From positions 744,001-808,000 of the forward strand of contig CP112999.1 of the NCBI GenBank assembly GCA_026625165.1: a stretch of DNA of 64,000 bases. Reading direction: 5' to 3'. Each line of letters starts with the position of its first letter. Position 1 is the first letter of the stretch. Source of the stretch: Methanoregula sp. (GTDB taxonomy: Archaea > Halobacteriota > Methanomicrobia > Methanomicrobiales > Methanospirillaceae). Of this stretch, positions 20,992 through 28,939 are shown one piece after another. The position numbers and the translations under genes are program-made. The notes under the pieces are model-generated. The model did no database searches, was not told the origin of the DNA, and saw only the letters and a list, made by a program, of their open reading frames with translations.

Positions 20992-22164
20992 TTAAAAGTT
21001 CTGGCCCGAACTACCGGGAATGTACCGCTGCACTGGAGTCTGTTCCGGTTCCGGAGCCTGAACAGGTTCGGGAGTCTGTGAAGGGGTAACGACGGGGCCG
21101 ATCACCGGCATATGGGTATGGTCATCGCTGCCCGGCAGGTAGATGCGATCGCCCTCGTTACCACTGCAGAATGTGACAATGTATTCGGTTAATGTATCAG
21201 GACCTGCGTTTTTACAGGTGAATGTCGAAGCTTTATCATCGTCAGCATAGCTGTAGGCAAGTTTGTAATATTTCTTGAACAGCGTCGCTGAGTTCAGGTT
21301 ATCCGGCCATGTCGTTGGATCACAGTACAGGCCGCCGTTATTGTCTCTGTCCTTGAATTGCCCGTACGGTGGAATGCAGCAGTATTCTTTGTTCTCGCTT
21401 CCTGTGGCCACAAAGGAATACTTGCACGCGCTGAAAACCCCGATGGTTCTTCCGTCTTGGGTTTTATTGGCAAGCAGTGCCGCCTCAGCATTTACTACAG
21501 CGTTGAGATCCGCACCCCCGCCGGCAGCCGCGCAGTCATACTGGAAATCGGGTCTTCCGACTTTCTTGTATGTGCCCGGCTTAAGTTCAATCTGGATCGG
21601 GAGATTATACCCGTCAACGATGCTCATATCATAAAAATCCTGATCACCATACCCGTCGAATGTTATCTCGCCCTTTGTTGCCGGGAACTTGGAACTGATG
21701 CCCCCGGCCTGCAGTTTGTCCTTGTTGTCCTGATTACTCAGGGCACCGGCTGTCTCGCACTGGAGGTCATTGTGGTCATCCGAACAACCGGTACGTCCCC
21801 AGAACGCCGCCCCCCACCCCTTCTTTACGGTCAGCGAATGTGTACCTGTCGACCCTGATTCAAGCTTGAACCCCCCGCCATCCGGGAGGGCTTCACCGCT
21901 GGTGCATGATGAAGTTCCGTTGCACTTTACTTCCGGACAAACAGAAGAGGGACAGCAAAAATCCACGGAGCACTGGCATGGAGCACATATACCTGTAGGA
22001 TTAGGAGATGCCGCAGGGAATTTTGAAAATGGGCCTATAATAGAGTTGACCCAGACGGGATATGTACAATGGTTCTGGAACGTTATTTTGTGATCTGCTG
22101 CAGATGCACCGGGGACAAGGGCAACCGCCGCAAGCACGAGGCAAACAACAAGTAATTCTCTCAT
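20992..22164 (-). CDS. Secreted thaumatin-like protein
   Basis: The 390-residue protein starts with a clear Sec signal (MRELLVVCLVLAAVALVPG, cut after GASA) and then shows the thaumatin fold in order. These are ITFQNHCTYPVWV, WGRTGC, GEITF, QDFYDMSIVDGYNLPIQI, then a second half with YCCIPPYG, YSYADDDKASTFTC and YIVTFC. The acidic-cleft residues (Arg of WGRTGC, Glu of GEITF, the two Asp of FYDMSIVDG, Asp of ADDDK) are all kept. More than 16 cysteines imply many disulfides outside the cell. A cysteine-dense insert at residues 60-85 and a proline-rich tail (about 355-390) are unusual. AGGTAAGGT precedes the start. The family is common in plants and fungi and rare in prokaryotes, so transfer is likely. 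Confidence 0.85.
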   Translation of the reverse strand: MRELLVVCLVLAAVALVPGASAADHKITFQNHCTYPVWVNSIIGPFSKFPAASPNPTGICAPCQCSVDFCCPSSVCPEVKCNGTSSCTSGEALPDGGGFKLESGSTGTHSLTVKKGWGAAFWGRTGCSDDHNDLQCETAGALSNQDNKDKLQAGGISSKFPATKGEITFDGYGDQDFYDMSIVDGYNLPIQIELKPGTYKKVGRPDFQYDCAAAGGGADLNAVVNAEAALLANKTQDGRTIGVFSACKYSFVATGSENKEYCCIPPYGQFKDRDNNGGLYCDPTTWPDNLNSATLFKKYYKLAYSYADDDKASTFTCKNAGPDTLTEYIVTFCSGNEGDRIYLPGSDDHTHMPVIGPVVTPSQTPEPVQAPEPEQTPVQRYIPGSSGQNF

Positions 22165-22284
22165 TTCTAAAAACCTTACCTGATTGAAAATTGGATACGA
22201 TGTTCATGAACGTTTCGTTTTTTACCCCATACATAAAAAAATGCCAAAAATGAAATACGGGAAGAGAATAGATCAGTTGTCTTC

Positions 22285-23343
22285 ATGAACCGCACAGGTA
22301 ATTCTGCCATCGCTCTTCTTATTGTAACCCTCTTTCTTTGCGGGTGCGTGCAGGTAACTATCAACCCCCAGATACCGGGATCTGCTGCACCCACCTCTAC
22401 TATGACACCTGCGGTTGTGCCGGGTACCCCGGTGCCTTCACCGGCCCAAAGCCCAATAAAAGGTGCGGCGGAAACAACGGGGGCCCCGTCCCCGAAATTC
22501 ATTATCCCGGTCGGCGACGTGTCCCGGGTCGGTCACCGGACTTTCACGTTCAACTATGCCCCTTACTCGGGCTCCCACGAGTACACCATCCGGGTGCCGG
22601 TCAATATGTCGGTGTATTACGGCGCCCGGCAGACAAAGGTTTACCTGCCGCAAAACGCCCAGGACCCTGAAGCAATCAAAGCCTACATCAGCTCTTTTGA
22701 ATCTGACCCGGCAATGGAGGAGCTCTACGGTAATGTTTTGAGGGAGTTGCGGAATGCACGGTACCGGCACGGGGGATACCTCTCTGACGATGAGTATTTC
22801 GAGCTGATCGTCGCGTTCGTCCAGCAGATCCCGTTTGTGGAAAACCCGTCGCCGAAGCGCAGGTATCCCATCGAGGTTATCTATGACAAGGCAGGCGACT
22901 CGGACGAAAAGAGCCTGCTTTTGGTAAACCTGCTCGCACGCGAAGGTTATGATGTCGCCCTCATGGTATACGAAGACCTCGGGTACGAGACAACGGGGAT
23001 CCGGGTTGTCGAGGAGATCCCCGACGCCTCGCTTAAGGTGTTCTCGGACGGGAAGAAGGATTACGTCTTCATCGATGCGGGCGTGCCGCGGTTCATCGGC
23101 AGCGTGCCGGATGTTTTCCTGACTGCCGATGACCCGGCGATCTACCCGGTCGGGAATGGTACGAAGAGCTACGGTCCGATCAATTATGTCTGGAAGGTTG
23201 TTGCCGATCTGAAAACGATGGTAAAGATTGGAAAGATCACCCGTTCCACGGTGATCAACCCATGGGACAAGTTCGGGACATGTTCGATGATCAAGAACTC
23301 CAAGGCATTGCAGAATACCACGTGCTACTGCTGCGACATGTGA
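22285..23343 (+). CDS. Transglutaminase-like lipoprotein lacking the catalytic cysteine
   Basis: The 352-residue protein has a lipoprotein signal ending in the lipobox LFLCGC, a threonine/proline-rich spacer (residues 35-75), and a transglutaminase-like domain. In that domain the usual GDCDDKS reads GDSDEKSLLLVNLLAREGYD, so serine replaces the catalytic cysteine. It is probably a binding or structural protein anchored outside the membrane. The C-terminus ends in a cysteine cluster, TTCYCCDM. It is divergent from the thaumatin-like gene (120 bp apart), and both are exported. The two may share regulation, but this is only inferred. Confidence 0.7.
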   Translation: MNRTGNSAIALLIVTLFLCGCVQVTINPQIPGSAAPTSTMTPAVVPGTPVPSPAQSPIKGAAETTGAPSPKFIIPVGDVSRVGHRTFTFNYAPYSGSHEYTIRVPVNMSVYYGARQTKVYLPQNAQDPEAIKAYISSFESDPAMEELYGNVLRELRNARYRHGGYLSDDEYFELIVAFVQQIPFVENPSPKRRYPIEVIYDKAGDSDEKSLLLVNLLAREGYDVALMVYEDLGYETTGIRVVEEIPDASLKVFSDGKKDYVFIDAGVPRFIGSVPDVFLTADDPAIYPVGNGTKSYGPINYVWKVVADLKTMVKIGKITRSTVINPWDKFGTCSMIKNSKALQNTTCYCCDM

Positions 23344-23869
23344 GGCGGCTGCCATGCCGTATCAGAAATTTTTTTTGACCCCGGTAATCAATCAGGATAA
23401 TATGCCAACTTAGCGCCTGAAATCTTCACGTTTTTCACACTTAATCGTTCGTGGGGGCTTTGGCTTACGCCTCGAAGAATTCAGACGAGTTCTTCTCCTG
23501 TCTCATCTCTTCGAGATTCGACAATTTAAAGAACCTTGCAGTTCTTCTCCTGTCTCATCTCTTCGAGATTCGACAATTTAAAGAACCTTGCAGTTCTTCT
23601 CCTGTCTCATCTCTTCGAGATTCGACAATTTAAAGAACCTTGCAGTTCTTCTCCTGTCTCATCTCTTCGAGATTCGACAATTTAAAGAACCTTGCAGTTC
23701 TTCTCCTGTCTCATCTCTTCGAGATTCGACAATTTAAAGAACCTTGCAGTTCTTCTCATGGCCTTCTCGTTGCCGTTTGCTCCGGTTGTCGAAAACAACT
23801 ATTTTTGAGAAAAACCAGGTTGTATTGAAAGCAGGGTTTTCGACTATATTTCCTGCGTGGCATGTATGA
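23344..23869. other. Gene-free convergent region holding the tandem repeats
   Basis: This 526-bp stretch lies between the stops of the lipoprotein and the large kinase. No gene is supported on either strand. It contains the 52-bp repeat array (23489-23758) and, after it, a GTTGT-CGAAA-ACAAC hairpin near 23785. Short rightward frames across the repeats change frame each unit because 52 is not a multiple of three. Confidence 0.6.
23489..23758. repeat. Five perfect 52-bp tandem repeats plus a partial sixth
   Basis: The unit recurs with phase points at 23491, 23543, 23595, 23647, 23699 and 23751. Units one to five appear identical; the sixth diverges after about 10 bases (TTCTTCTCATGG). Each unit holds a 5-bp stem, ATCTC-TTC-GAGAT, and an AT-rich centre, AATTTAAAG. 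There is no spacer, so it is not a CRISPR array. It lies between two converging genes. The perfect identity suggests recent expansion or active homogenisation. Confidence 0.92.
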
Positions 23870-26800
23870 TCATTCCGGCACCGGGTTGAATGTCCCATGG
23901 GTTTTTCCTTTCTCGTCTGTTTTTCTTTTTATCGTGATTTCAAACCGGGTGCCTTCTCCGGGTTGCTGTTCGATAGTCCCGTCCAGTTGTTCTACCAGAC
24001 CAATAATAAGCTTAAACCCAAGGGTATCGGTAGTGCGCCAGTCAAAATCCTTCCCAAACCCGACCCCGTTATCGCGATAGCTCAACGTGAGACCTTTTTT
24101 ATCATCCCTGACGCTGATGGAAATTTCACCTTTCCTCCCCCCGGGGAACGCATGTTTGAGGGAGTTTGAGACCAGTTCGTTGACAATAAGGCCGAATGGA
24201 ATTGTGGTGTTAATATCTGCAAAAATGTTAGTGGCATCAATGACAAGTCCGATGGTTCTGGGGGGCACCTTAAAGAGGGTAAATAATTGGGTAGTCAGGT
24301 ATTTTATATACGGTTCCAGTTCTATTTTTGCAAGGTCTTGCGAGGTATAGAGTTTTTCATGGACAAACGCCATCGCCCGTATCCGGTTCTGGCTCTCCTG
24401 CATCGCAGCAGCACATACCTCATCTCCGATGCTCCGTGACTGCAGCGAGAGCAGGCTGATGATGATCTGGAAATTGTTCCTGACCCGGTGGTGTACCTCG
24501 CGGAGGAGGAACTCTTTTTCATGGAGTGATTTGACGATCTGCTCTTCTGCAGCTTTCCGTCCGGTAATGTCACGGGCGATCCCACGGTATCCCAGGAGGT
24601 TCCTGTTCGTATCAAAAAAAGGGACGCCATTTGTTTCGAACACAACACGCTGCCCGTCTTTATGCAGGTTAATGCTTTCCAGTCCTACGATGAACTTTTG
24701 ACCCGCAACGATCTCCAGAAATATTTTTCCTGTTTTTTCTGCTTCATCAGGCGGCATCAGGTCAAACGGCGTCTTCCCGATGACTTCTTCAGGTTCGTAT
24801 CCCAGCAGGTCCCTGACTTTCGGGCTGACATAGATAAATTTCCCGTCCTGGTTTACTTCCCAGACAAAGTCGCTGGTCGTTTCAACAAGGGAACGGAAGC
24901 GCTCCTCGCTCTCCTTCAGGGCGTCATCGGCCATTCCTTTCAGGATGACCTGCGATGCCGTACTGGCGATATCTTCCAGTAATTTTTCTTCCCATGGTTC
25001 GATTTTGTTCTTGCTGAAAAGCGCGATAACACCGATCGGCCGGCCTTCAGCCGAGCTGAGCCGGTACCCTGCAAATGAGACCAGCCCTAACGAACGTGCC
25101 CATTCGTGGTCGTGGACACGGGGATCGTTTATGACATCATTGGTGACAAATCCCGGGTGTTCGGCAGTTGCAACACGCCCAATCTTATAGGCACCCATGG
25201 GGACCCTGCGGTGACCGCCATCGATATGGGTATACCGCCCGGAACTGGCCATGAGATGGAGGCAGCGGGTGCGGTCCCGGCAGACATGCGGACCTTCTGT
25301 CACGGCAGCGTGCTGGCAGCCTTTTTCGCAGAGATCGGAGTCTCTAGTCATCCAGATCCGGGCAAAATCGGCATTGAAAATTTCCACGACCCCTTCAGTG
25401 ATGAGTTTGAGTTTCTCATTTAGACTCAGAGCGGCAAGAAGTCCCTCTTTTACCGCGCTCAGTTTTGTAATGTGTTCGTTGATCCGCTTGCGCTCGGTGA
25501 TCTCATCTTCAAGTTCGATGTTTACATGGGCAAGCTCTGCAGTGCGTTCACGGACCCGCATCTCCAGTTCATCATGGGCTTTTTTCAGTGCAGTTTCCTT
25601 ATCCTTCAGTTCAGTAATGTCCCGTGAAATTCCAAGTATGGAAAAGACGTCCCCGTCCTTATCCAGGAGAGGTACAAAATGGGTATCATACCACCGGTGA
25701 GAAGAGGGAAGAGGGATCTCCATCTCAATATGTTGTGTTTTTCCCCTCTCGACAACTTGGTGAATGATGGCACTTATTTTTTCAAAGGTCTCCTGTGGAA
25801 ACAGCGCCTGTAATAACATTCCGGTCAATTCTCCGGGTGATTTTCCGAACTGATCCGCTCCGAATGAATTCATGTATGAAAACTTCAAATCAGGATTAAT
25901 GATGAAGATGACATCCTGCGCTGACTCGGCAAGGATACGGTACCGGTATTCACTTTGTGCAAGTGCTTTCTCTACCATCTTACGTTCGGTGATGTCAATA
26001 ACAATTCCCTCGTAATGGGTGATTTTTCCATCCTTATCCCGGCGGATATGTGTATAGTCATCGATCCAGTATTCCGACCTGTCTTTTCCAAAGATTCTGT
26101 AGATTTGCTTGAATTCGTCGATATTATTCTTACTATTGTATTCCACTTCAGCAGCTACCTGCCCAAGATCATCAGGATGAATAATGGAACTGTATAAAAC
26201 GCTGCCCGATACAAAATCATTAACTGAATACCCGAATTGTGAAATATTTCTGCTTACCATTTCCACCGGCCAGTTCTCTTCAGCCTTCCAGAGAAAAGCA
26301 ACCGCCGGGCTCGTGTTGATAATCCTGAGCTGCTCTTCCTGCAGGTGGAGCAGTACTTCAATGCGATCCTGGGTGGCTTTCTTTTCGGTGATATCCCTGA
26401 CCGTTCCCTGGAACCCTACCACGTTGCCATTTTTGTCTTTCCGGACGACTGATGTGATGAGCGTGTTGATAACTGAGCCGTCTTTTTTCCTCAGTTCAAT
26501 CGGGAAGTCCCTGGTAAATCCCTTCTGCCTGATAATGTCGATATGCCGGGTTCTTTCACCGGGATTCGCATAGAGGTCACGTATGTTGACCTGAAGCAGC
26601 TCCTCCCTGCTGCCGTACCCAAAGAGCTCCACCGCCCCATCGTTGAGGTCGACCCATCTGCCGTCAGCTGTAGTGATAAACACGCAGTCACGCGAGGTAT
26701 TGAAGAATGCACGGTATTTTTCTTCGCTCTCACGTAGCGTAGACTCGGCCTGCTTCAGGTCAGAGATATCGATGAAGCTTTCAAGAAGGTGGGGACGTTC

Positions 26801-28939
26801 ATTAATGGTAATAGGGACAACCGATTTGAGGATTGGGATTTTTTCGCCATGGTGCGTCAGCAAAACTTTCTCAGATTTATCGACCGTCAGTTCCGGATCT
26901 GTAATAGGACATGCCCCGATCTCTGCGGGACAGATATAGCGGTGGCAGACCGAACCGACGATCTGGTCCTTCCGGGCCCCAATCATTCTGGCTGCAACTG
27001 AATTGAGATCGACAATAGTATGGGTTTCTGGATCGATGATTACCACGCCGGCGATCATCGATTCAAGGATCTCTTTTAACCGCCCCTCGCTCTCTGTCAG
27101 ACTGATCTCCAGCCGCTTGCGGTCAGTGATATCCCGGTTGCTCACCCGTCTTCCGACAGCGTTCCCTTCAGCATCGTAGACATGCCGGCAGGCATGACCA
27201 ATCCAGCGCACGGTGCCGTCCCGGTGCATAATCCTGAAATCCTTGGACAATACCTGACGGGTTTCCCATGCGACCCGGTTATGTTCCTGCATTGATGAGA
27301 GATCATCAGGATGTACAATTGTTTCCAAAAGGTTCAGATCTGCAAAAAATTCCTCCGGGGTATAACCCGTGATTCGTTCACAGGACGGGGTCATGTAGAT
27401 GATCTGTTTGTCCTCTGCCTGCCAGTATTCCCAGTCGGAAGTGAAATCTGCTATGGTATGGAACTTTGCTTCACTCTCATAAATCTCCTTTTCAGCGCGT
27501 TTTCGTTCGGTAATATCACGCACAAAGACGATAAACTGCCGTTTTTGAGCCTGAAAAGATACGCTTACTTCGACATCAATTATCCCGCCGTCCTTTGTCC
27601 GGTGCCGGGTCTCAAACCGGTCTGAGCCTGTTTTAAGAATTTTCTGCATGTGCGCAACCGCAGCGTCTTTGCTCTCGTTTGCATCCTGGTCAGAAATGGA
27701 TCTTCCCAGCAGTTCCTCGCGGGAAAACCCGGTCATACGGCAGTAATTGTCGTTTACTTCAATCAGCCGGCCCTTGGCATCAACAAGGTTATAGCCGTCC
27801 CGGGTTGTCCTGAGGAGGGTTGAGTACCATTCCGCATACTCCCTTGATACCTGCCCGGCCTTTTCGCGATCGGTGATATCAATGCCAATTGCAATATAAT
27901 TGCCAGGGGTACCTTTGCTGTCTGGCAGGCCGCGGGTATTCCAGAGGAGGGTCTTTTTCGTCCCGTTTTTGGCAACAATTGTAGACTGAAGGTTCTCAAG
28001 ATAATTGTCACGCTTAATGATCCCCGATATCTTTTCCGTAATTTCCTTACGGTAAATTTTCTCCGGGTAAAGAAGTTTCCAAACAGCGTTTGAACCGGTA
28101 ACTTCGGCGGCCGCATATCCACTGATCTCTTCAGCAGCCTTGTTCCATTCGAGGATCCGGCCACGTGGATCGATCAACATCAGCCAGACGTTCGCATTTT
28201 TAATGATGCTCTCCCGTACATCGGAAAGCCTGCGCATCTCTGAGAGCATGAGCTCGCGATCGGTGATGTCGGTGACCGTCAGGACGACGCGGTGTTCAGG
28301 AAGTGCCCCGGCGGACAGGAGAACCGTTCGCGTCTCTCCGGATTTTTGGACTAGGTGCACTTCGAAATTCCGGGCAAATCCTGCGGAACTGATTAAGTCC
28401 GAACACCGGATCAGCTCCTGCCGTTCATGCCAGATTGTATCGAGGGGTTGGTTGACCAGCTCGTCTGTCGTATATCCCAGCATGCCGGCACCACGGCGGT
28501 TCACCTCCGTAATCATTCGCAGGGGCATATCGACAACGAAGATACCGTCCTCGGAGTTAGCAATAATGGTGTTGCGCTCCAGTTCCCTTTTTTTGAGGGT
28601 TTCAGAAAGGTACGAAACTACCGCTGCGATCCCGACAAAGACAACAAACCGGACAAGAGCTCCGGCTATAACCTCCATGTCCGGGAACACAAAAAATGTG
28701 ACAAGGGCGACGTAGAGCAGCCCGAGCACGGCAGACAGGATTACACCTTTTTTATGGTAATGGTACGCAAGCAGGATGATCGGGAAATAATACAGGTGCA
28801 TGAAGATGATCGTGATGCCATGCGCGAGACAATAGACCGTAAAGAGAAGAATAAGGACAGAAGTGCTAAGGAGAAGGACCCTCCACCCGTTTTCCGTTAA
28901 TAAGGATCCGGATTCCCGGGTACCGGTCATACCAGTCAT
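23870..28939 (-). CDS. Giant membrane sensor kinase: about nine PAS, one GAF, HisKA_2
   Basis: The 1689-residue protein opens with about four membrane helices (residues 18-118), including HGITIIFMHLYYFPIILLAYH. About eight PAS domains follow in tandem, most closed by a PAC-like VRDITERK-type motif. Then come a coiled linker, a GAF domain with a cysteine-rich stretch (CEKGC, VCRDRTRC), and a ninth PAS. The C-terminus has the HisKA_2 box REVHHRVRNNFQIIISLL and an HATPase domain (NELVSNSLKHAF, DNGVGFGKDF). Many inputs, perhaps redox or gas ligands, probably converge on one output. It is the second gene of a leftward operon, 27 bp after the 496-residue kinase. ATG at 28930 is an alternative start. 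No receiver gene is adjacent. Confidence 0.92.
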   Translation of the reverse strand: MTGMTGTRESGSLLTENGWRVLLLSTSVLILLFTVYCLAHGITIIFMHLYYFPIILLAYHYHKKGVILSAVLGLLYVALVTFFVFPDMEVIAGALVRFVVFVGIAAVVSYLSETLKKRELERNTIIANSEDGIFVVDMPLRMITEVNRRGAGMLGYTTDELVNQPLDTIWHERQELIRCSDLISSAGFARNFEVHLVQKSGETRTVLLSAGALPEHRVVLTVTDITDRELMLSEMRRLSDVRESIIKNANVWLMLIDPRGRILEWNKAAEEISGYAAAEVTGSNAVWKLLYPEKIYRKEITEKISGIIKRDNYLENLQSTIVAKNGTKKTLLWNTRGLPDSKGTPGNYIAIGIDITDREKAGQVSREYAEWYSTLLRTTRDGYNLVDAKGRLIEVNDNYCRMTGFSREELLGRSISDQDANESKDAAVAHMQKILKTGSDRFETRHRTKDGGIIDVEVSVSFQAQKRQFIVFVRDITERKRAEKEIYESEAKFHTIADFTSDWEYWQAEDKQIIYMTPSCERITGYTPEEFFADLNLLETIVHPDDLSSMQEHNRVAWETRQVLSKDFRIMHRDGTVRWIGHACRHVYDAEGNAVGRRVSNRDITDRKRLEISLTESEGRLKEILESMIAGVVIIDPETHTIVDLNSVAARMIGARKDQIVGSVCHRYICPAEIGACPITDPELTVDKSEKVLLTHHGEKIPILKSVVPITINERPHLLESFIDISDLKQAESTLRESEEKYRAFFNTSRDCVFITTADGRWVDLNDGAVELFGYGSREELLQVNIRDLYANPGERTRHIDIIRQKGFTRDFPIELRKKDGSVINTLITSVVRKDKNGNVVGFQGTVRDITEKKATQDRIEVLLHLQEEQLRIINTSPAVAFLWKAEENWPVEMVSRNISQFGYSVNDFVSGSVLYSSIIHPDDLGQVAAEVEYNSKNNIDEFKQIYRIFGKDRSEYWIDDYTHIRRDKDGKITHYEGIVIDITERKMVEKALAQSEYRYRILAESAQDVIFIINPDLKFSYMNSFGADQFGKSPGELTGMLLQALFPQETFEKISAIIHQVVERGKTQHIEMEIPLPSSHRWYDTHFVPLLDKDGDVFSILGISRDITELKDKETALKKAHDELEMRVRERTAELAHVNIELEDEITERKRINEHITKLSAVKEGLLAALSLNEKLKLITEGVVEIFNADFARIWMTRDSDLCEKGCQHAAVTEGPHVCRDRTRCLHLMASSGRYTHIDGGHRRVPMGAYKIGRVATAEHPGFVTNDVINDPRVHDHEWARSLGLVSFAGYRLSSAEGRPIGVIALFSKNKIEPWEEKLLEDIASTASQVILKGMADDALKESEERFRSLVETTSDFVWEVNQDGKFIYVSPKVRDLLGYEPEEVIGKTPFDLMPPDEAEKTGKIFLEIVAGQKFIVGLESINLHKDGQRVVFETNGVPFFDTNRNLLGYRGIARDITGRKAAEEQIVKSLHEKEFLLREVHHRVRNNFQIIISLLSLQSRSIGDEVCAAAMQESQNRIRAMAFVHEKLYTSQDLAKIELEPYIKYLTTQLFTLFKVPPRTIGLVIDATNIFADINTTIPFGLIVNELVSNSLKHAFPGGRKGEISISVRDDKKGLTLSYRDNGVGFGKDFDWRTTDTLGFKLIIGLVEQLDGTIEQQPGEGTRFEITIKRKTDEKGKTHGTFNPVPE

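What the first reader, a model, noticed from the sequence alone, without database searches (positions are those of the whole stretch)
20992..22164. Thaumatin-like protein in a methanogen
Signal peptide, WGRTGC, QDFYDMSIVDGYNLP and the ADDDK-TFTC segments are all in thaumatin order, and the five acidic-cleft residues are kept. The family is mainly plant, fungal and animal, with few prokaryotic members. An exported form with a cysteine-dense insert and a proline-rich tail, in an anaerobic archaeon, suggests horizontal transfer and a role in binding glucans or attacking neighbours. That role is inference.
Basis: partly seen in the sequence, partly recalled or inferred. Interest (0 to 1): 0.8.

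Follow-up and report, generated by a model that had tools for sequence, protein, structure and literature searches.

The report
Thaumatin-like surface protein in a methanogen
This methanogen carries a genuine exported relative of the plant defence and sweet-taste protein thaumatin, part of one old archaeal branch of that family, and it ends in a tail also found on unrelated exported proteins and linked to one neighbouring lipoprotein, which suggests a surface-display system not yet described.

Summary
The ORF is on the minus strand (20992-22164, 390 aa), matches PF00314 at E=3.2e-30 and is predicted to have the thaumatin fold (pLDDT 87; Mal d 2, E=1e-18). The acidic REDDD residues are kept. 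The genome is a methanogen (MCR present).

The reading changes in three ways. (1) It is not a lone recent import: thaumatin-like proteins (TLPs) occur in 19 of 108 genomes of this archaeal family, nowhere else found in its order, and form one clade (99/97) with an archaeal-specific cysteine-rich insert. (2) Bacterial relatives are fused to CBM6, GH16 or ricin-B domains, favouring glycan binding. (3) The 'proline-rich tail' is a module (R-x-x-LPG...HxH...YxP...NF-COOH) also found on exported phosphatase-like proteins. It occurs almost only in genomes that encode close orthologues of the divergent neighbouring lipoprotein (22285-23343 +; 11 genomes have both, 3 have only one), which looks like a transglutaminase/LapG-type protein whose catalytic Cys is Ser.

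Best explanation: a surface-retained glycan-binding protein whose tail is recognised by the lipoprotein. Fold, distribution and co-occurrence are shown; the ligand and the anchoring mechanism are inferred. Attack on neighbours is not supported.

The parts
20992..22164 (-). Thaumatin-like protein CDS (390 aa)
   Evidence: AF2 model; PDB fold match
22099..22164 (-). Sec-type signal peptide, residues 1-22
   Evidence: sequence inspection; hydrophobic core KD19 2.56; helix 2-15 in model
21889..22029 (-). Cysteine-rich insert in domain I (about residues 46-92, 8 Cys), present in all 18 archaeal TLPs aligned; most bacterial TLPs lack it
   Evidence: alignments; Cys list
21163..21903 (-). PF00314 match, residues 88-334, with R124, E166, D176, D184, D309
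20995..21156 (-). C-terminal tail module, residues 337-390: R-x-x-LPG-x-x-x-HxHxP, Pro-rich linker, YxPxxSGxxNF-COOH; shared with phosphatase-like proteins
22165..22284 (.). 120-bp divergent intergenic region; conserved GCCAA-N3-T-N-AAATA at 22243-22257 (+), about 28-42 nt before the partner start
   Evidence: the motif also precedes partner genes with no TLP beside them
22285..23343 (+). Partner: 352-aa lipoprotein (lipobox LCGC, Cys21), transglutaminase/LapG-like, catalytic Cys replaced by Ser206 (GDSDEKS), C-terminal CYCCD motif

Best explanation
The gene encodes an exported, disulphide-rich thaumatin-like protein of an archaeal-specific branch that stays on the producer's own surface and binds glycans, probably beta-1,3-type glucans, through its acidic cleft, tethering the methanogen to polysaccharide matrix or partner cells. 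Its disordered C-terminal tail is a retention signal recognised by the membrane lipoprotein encoded head-to-head with it, a transglutaminase/LapG-like protein that has lost its catalytic Cys-His and so acts as a binder rather than an enzyme. Shown: family, fold, conserved cleft residues, export features, the tail on two unrelated protein families, and tail-partner co-occurrence. Inferred: glycan ligand, surface location, tail-partner contact.
For: PF00314 and fold, including matches to GH64 beta-1,3-glucanases. REDDD kept; in eukaryotes it goes with glucan binding or lysis (PMC3048497). Bacterial TLPs are fused to three CBM6 plus GH16 (L057), CBM6 (L036, L058), ricin-B lectin (L035, L055) or F5/8C (L045). 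Tail: a single-sequence search of the own genome hits a second, unrelated exported protein at E=1.1e-8; the tail profile finds it on phosphatase-like proteins in other genomes. Partner lies head-to-head with the TLP in 8 of 11 genomes that have a near-complete close orthologue; in L099 it is next to a tail-bearing phosphatase instead. Tail versus partner: 11 both, 1 tail only, 2 partner only, 94 neither of 108, Fisher p=3e-12 (p=1e-6 within Methanoregula). Other archaeal TLPs have a lipobox (L002) or a C-terminal transmembrane helix (L009).
Against: No direct evidence of glycan binding, and no carbohydrate genes beside it. Partner fold match is weak (LapG, E=0.007; no Pfam family) and its model is moderate (pLDDT 75). 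Fisher values ignore shared ancestry. G282 (a Methanoregula genome) has a partner but no tail. In G426 the partner is not beside the tail-bearing TLP.
Confidence: 0.4

Rival explanations
1. It is an active GH152-like endo-beta-1,3-glucanase that trims glucans outside the cell for spatial access, or for syntrophic partners that use the sugars.
For: REDDD kept; [quoted passage not shown] a bacterial TLP is fused to GH16; GH64 fold kinship.
Against: Hydrogenotrophic methanogens do not ferment sugars (general knowledge); no sugar uptake genes were seen beside it; in L057 catalysis can be supplied by the GH16 domain.
Confidence: 0.18
2. It is a secreted antagonist (membrane-permeabilising, antifungal or antibacterial) as first suggested.
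For: Membrane permeabilisation is one reported antifungal mode of plant TLPs (PMC3048497); the protein is exported.
Against: Putative surface-retention features in several archaeal lineages; no immunity or toxin-delivery genes seen beside it; conserved partner is a lipoprotein.
Confidence: 0.1
3. It is an inhibitor of foreign hydrolases or proteases (as TL-XI inhibits xylanases), guarding the archaeal envelope.
For: TL-XI is in the same fold family; surface location would suit; the neighbour resembles a dead protease.
Against: TL-XI belongs to small TLPs that lack an acidic cleft, whereas the cleft residues here are conserved.
Confidence: 0.12
4. The shared tail has no sorting role; it was spread by domain shuffling and the partner correlates only because all carriers are close relatives.
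For: Tail genomes are nearly all Methanoregula; G282 has a partner without a tail; Fisher tests ignore phylogeny.
Against: The association holds within Methanoregula (p=1e-6) and again in the window's genus, where 7 congeners have neither; HxH and the terminal YxP..NF are invariant or nearly so in a stretch predicted disordered; the partner is once next to a tail-bearing phosphatase rather than a TLP (L099).
Confidence: 0.35

Closest known systems
Thaumatin-like proteins, PF00314 / PR-5 (Mal d 2, Pru av 2, osmotin, Puccinia TLP)
   Same: Pfam match far over cut-off, thaumatin fold by Foldseek, REDDD residues, secretion signal
   Different: Only 10 core Cys instead of 16; archaeal-specific 8-Cys insert in domain I; C-terminal tail; archaeal host; about 29% identity
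Bacterial TLPs (Myxococcota, Actinomycetota, Chitinophaga, Spirochaetales, Syntrophorhabdus)
   Same: Same domain; best non-archaeal matches (38-39%); exported; often multidomain
   Different: Most lack the Cys-rich insert; several are fused to CBM6, GH16, ricin-B or F5/8C instead of the tail
GH64 beta-1,3-glucanases and fungal SUN domains
   Same: Thaumatin-like fold elements; beta-1,3-glucan ligands (PMC13251364)
   Different: Weak matches only (GH64 E about 1e-5; SUN 9t4q E=0.11, not significant); SUN domains lack REDDD
Archaeosortase / PEF-CTERM and LPXTG sorting
   Same: C-terminal signal shared by unrelated exported proteins, co-occurring with one dedicated envelope protein
   Different: No C-terminal transmembrane helix, no known motif, no NCBIfam match; putative receptor is a lipoprotein, not a sortase
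LapG-type transglutaminase-like cysteine proteases (compared with the partner)
   Same: Top weak fold hits are all LapG; paralogues in the same genomes keep GDC...H
   Different: Catalytic Cys is Ser and His is lost; lipoprotein; no Pfam family

Membership tests
Thaumatin family PF00314 | Score over curated cut-off | tested here: met
   105.8 vs 27.4 bits
Thaumatin family PF00314 | Thaumatin fold | tested here: met
   AF2 pLDDT 87; 28 top Foldseek hits are TLPs, TMt 0.72-0.84
Thaumatin family PF00314 | REDDD residues | tested here: met
   R124, E166, D176, D184, D309 by alignment
Thaumatin family PF00314 | Residues arranged as an open acidic cleft in 3D | not tested
Thaumatin family PF00314 | 16 conserved cysteines of typical TLPs (not a strict criterion; small TLPs have 10) | tested here: not met
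   10 in the core plus 8 in the insert
GH152 beta-1,3-glucanase | Hydrolytic activity | not testable with these tools
   Needs biochemistry
Known C-terminal sorting signals (LPXTG, PEF/PGF-CTERM) | Motif plus C-terminal transmembrane helix | tested here: not met
   No hydrophobic C-terminus; no NCBIfam hit at E<=10 for P0001
Transglutaminase / LapG (partner) | Family profile match | tested here: not met
   No Pfam or NCBIfam match over cut-off for P0002; only paralogue L108 reaches Transglut_core, at E=0.039, below cut-off
Transglutaminase / LapG (partner) | Fold | tested here: inconclusive
   Top six hits are LapG chains but E 0.007-0.067
Transglutaminase / LapG (partner) | Catalytic Cys-His | tested here: not met
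   GDSDEKS or GDSDEKT in P0002 and nine orthologues, GDTDEKS in L101, GDCDEK/GDCDDK in paralogues; His lost

The most novel reading that the evidence does not exclude
The tail and the pseudo-transglutaminase lipoprotein form a new archaeal surface-display system: a C-terminal sorting tag with no transmembrane helix on thaumatin-like and phosphatase-like cargo, captured by a catalytically dead LapG-like lipoprotein.
Probability: 0.25. Interest if true: 0.75.

Novelty: new variant of a known kind. Interest (0 to 1): 0.55.

Why it matters
No paper found in the searched library describes thaumatin-like proteins in archaea. A single archaeal branch with its own disulphide-rich insert extends a family studied almost only in plants, fungi and animals, and offers a natural test of what the acidic cleft does in an organism with no plant-type defence role. 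If the tail-lipoprotein pairing is real, it would be a surface-attachment route in methanogens unlike the known archaeosortase system, and would show how these archaea may attach to matrix and syntrophic partners.

Tried and rejected
- Viral origin: no relative in IMG/VR with the single-sequence query, no PHROGs match.
- Hit outside the family in the order (G539/L022): below cut-off; the ORF read there is a permease, so rejected as a false positive.
- Recent HGT into this genome alone: rejected, as relatives occur in six genera of the family and form one clade. Gene GC 0.523 is close to window GC 0.529.
- Clean empty site in congeners: G371 and G401 keep only the left flank (TauE, isochorismatase), so inconclusive. 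A clean TLP-less locus exists in G426 (L100 vs L023).
- GCCAA...AAATA motif as a co-regulation signal: rejected, it precedes the partner gene even without a TLP beside it.
- LPATGA ending of L006/L016 as a sortase motif: no hydrophobic segment follows.
- LapG assignment of the partner: kept tentative because the fold match is weak.
- Tree caveats: 41 rows, five eukaryotic sequences taken from PDB alignments; the donor domain is not resolved.

Full report
OBSERVATION. The reported interval holds one ORF of 390 aa, on the minus strand. It matches Pfam Thaumatin PF00314 with 105.8 bits (cut-off 27.4; E=3.2e-30). Its PDB sequence relatives are all thaumatin-like proteins (TLPs), best Mal d 2 and Pru av 2. 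With an alignment of 37 archaeal and bacterial TLPs, AlphaFold2 gave pLDDT 87.4 and pTM 0.82; the cysteine-rich insert is modelled at about 95, and only the tail is below 50. Foldseek's first 28 hits are TLPs (best E=1e-18), followed by the small TLP TL-XI and then GH64 beta-1,3-glucanases. The REDDD residues map to R124, E166, D176, D184 and D309. The mature protein has 18 Cys, 8 of them in the insert; the core has 10 rather than the usual 16. The genome encodes MCR, so the host is a methanogen. Close pairs show dN/dS near 0.25, so the gene is under purifying selection.

DISTRIBUTION. In 394 genomes of the phylum, PF00314 rings in six, all in the window's own family. In the family, 19 of 108 genomes and 6 of 17 genera have it; in the rest of the order there is only one sub-threshold false positive. 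None of seven congeners has it. Bacterial relatives are scattered: Myxococcota, Actinomycetota, Chitinophaga, Spirochaetales, Ktedonobacteria, Syntrophorhabdus and Syntrophobacterales; about 3% of genomes sampled in the phylum of L053.

TREE. IQ-TREE on 41 sequences puts all archaeal TLPs on one side of a branch (99/97). P0001 is sister to a Methanoregula protein (L008, 100/99); bacteria and five eukaryotic sequences are mixed on the other side. The insert occurs in all 18 archaeal sequences aligned and is missing from most bacterial ones; Geobacter and Syntrophobacterales TLPs (L059, L061) have a very large Cys-rich insert at the same site. One old acquisition followed by patchy gain and loss fits best. 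In G426 the locus with the same flanks as in G438 has the partner gene but no TLP (L100 vs L023).

FUNCTION CLUES. Bacterial TLPs are fused to CBM6 and GH16 (L057), CBM6 (L036, L058), ricin-B lectin (L035, L055) and F5/8C (L045). In eukaryotes the acidic cleft goes with antifungal and beta-1,3-glucanase properties (PMC3048497), and fungal SUN domains use a thaumatin-like half to bind beta-1,3-glucan (PMC13251364). The archaeal TLPs differ in how they could stay on the cell: lipobox in L002, C-terminal transmembrane helix in L009, SdrD-B domain in L007/L031, PKD domain in L006, and the tail in the P0001 group. This favours action at the producer's own surface.

THE TAIL. Searching P0001 in its own genome also hit, at E=1.1e-8, the end of an unrelated exported ORF (L063). 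That protein carries HCVLGTDRTG, a CX5R phosphatase signature; related tail-bearing proteins reach Pfam DSPc at best E=1.4e-5, below the cut-off. A profile of the tail finds it in 12 genomes at E<=0.001, all Methanoregula plus this one; apart from short fragments, every carrier that I read is a TLP or a phosphatase-like protein. Invariant are R, LPG, H and H, Q-T and V, one P near the end, and the terminal F. It has no transmembrane helix, and P0001 has no NCBIfam match even at E<=10.

THE PARTNER. The gene 22285-23343 (+) is conserved head-to-head with the TLP at 59-73% identity in seven other genomes, in L099 next to a tail-bearing phosphatase, and in L100 with neither. Of 108 genomes, 11 have both tail and close partner, 1 tail only (a genome in 810 contigs), 2 partner only (one a fragment), 94 neither (p=3e-12; within Methanoregula p=1e-6). 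These p-values ignore shared ancestry. The partner has a lipobox, GDSDEK where paralogues have GDCDEK, no His, and a CYCCD end. Its model (pLDDT 75) gives only weak hits, the best six all LapG (E from 0.007). I read it as a non-catalytic transglutaminase/LapG-like binder; this is tentative.

CONCLUSION. Membership in the thaumatin family is secure. That it works as a surface-retained glycan binder is the most likely of several readings. That the tail is a sorting signal served by the lipoprotein is a testable inference from co-occurrence, not a demonstrated mechanism. Literature searches found no paper with both 'thaumatin-like protein' and 'Methanoregula', and no relevant archaeal TLP among the listed results of the broader searches; the library holds only open-licence papers.

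Noticed in passing
window 23488-23757: Perfect tandem repeat, 52-bp unit, 5.2 copies at 100% identity, just after the partner gene.
   Followed up: no
window 22243-22257 (+): GCCAA-N3-T-N-AAATA element, conserved upstream of most close partner orthologues, including two with no TLP beside them; likely that gene's promoter element.
   Followed up: partly
L063:1987-3339 (G000:C1 about 868 kb) and L084, L090-L093, L095, L096, L098: Family of exported HCx5R phosphatase-like proteins, poorly covered by Pfam, that carry the same C-terminal tail or its end.
   Followed up: partly
L057:2-2647: Spirochaetales protein joining a TLP, three CBM6 and a GH16 domain; the same MAG has seven TLP matches.
   Followed up: partly
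L059:4876-6699 and L061:4876-6723: Syntrophobacterales and Geobacter TLPs of about 600 aa with very long Cys-rich inserts at the same domain I site.
   Followed up: no
window 23870-28939 (-): 1689-aa ORF that by eye looks like a multi-PAS sensor histidine kinase, next to the repeat array.
   Followed up: no
L105, L106 (same genome), L107, L108: Lipoprotein paralogues of the partner that keep the GDC...H catalytic residues, without a Pfam match over cut-off; partner-like matches occur in 91 of 108 family genomes.
   Followed up: partly
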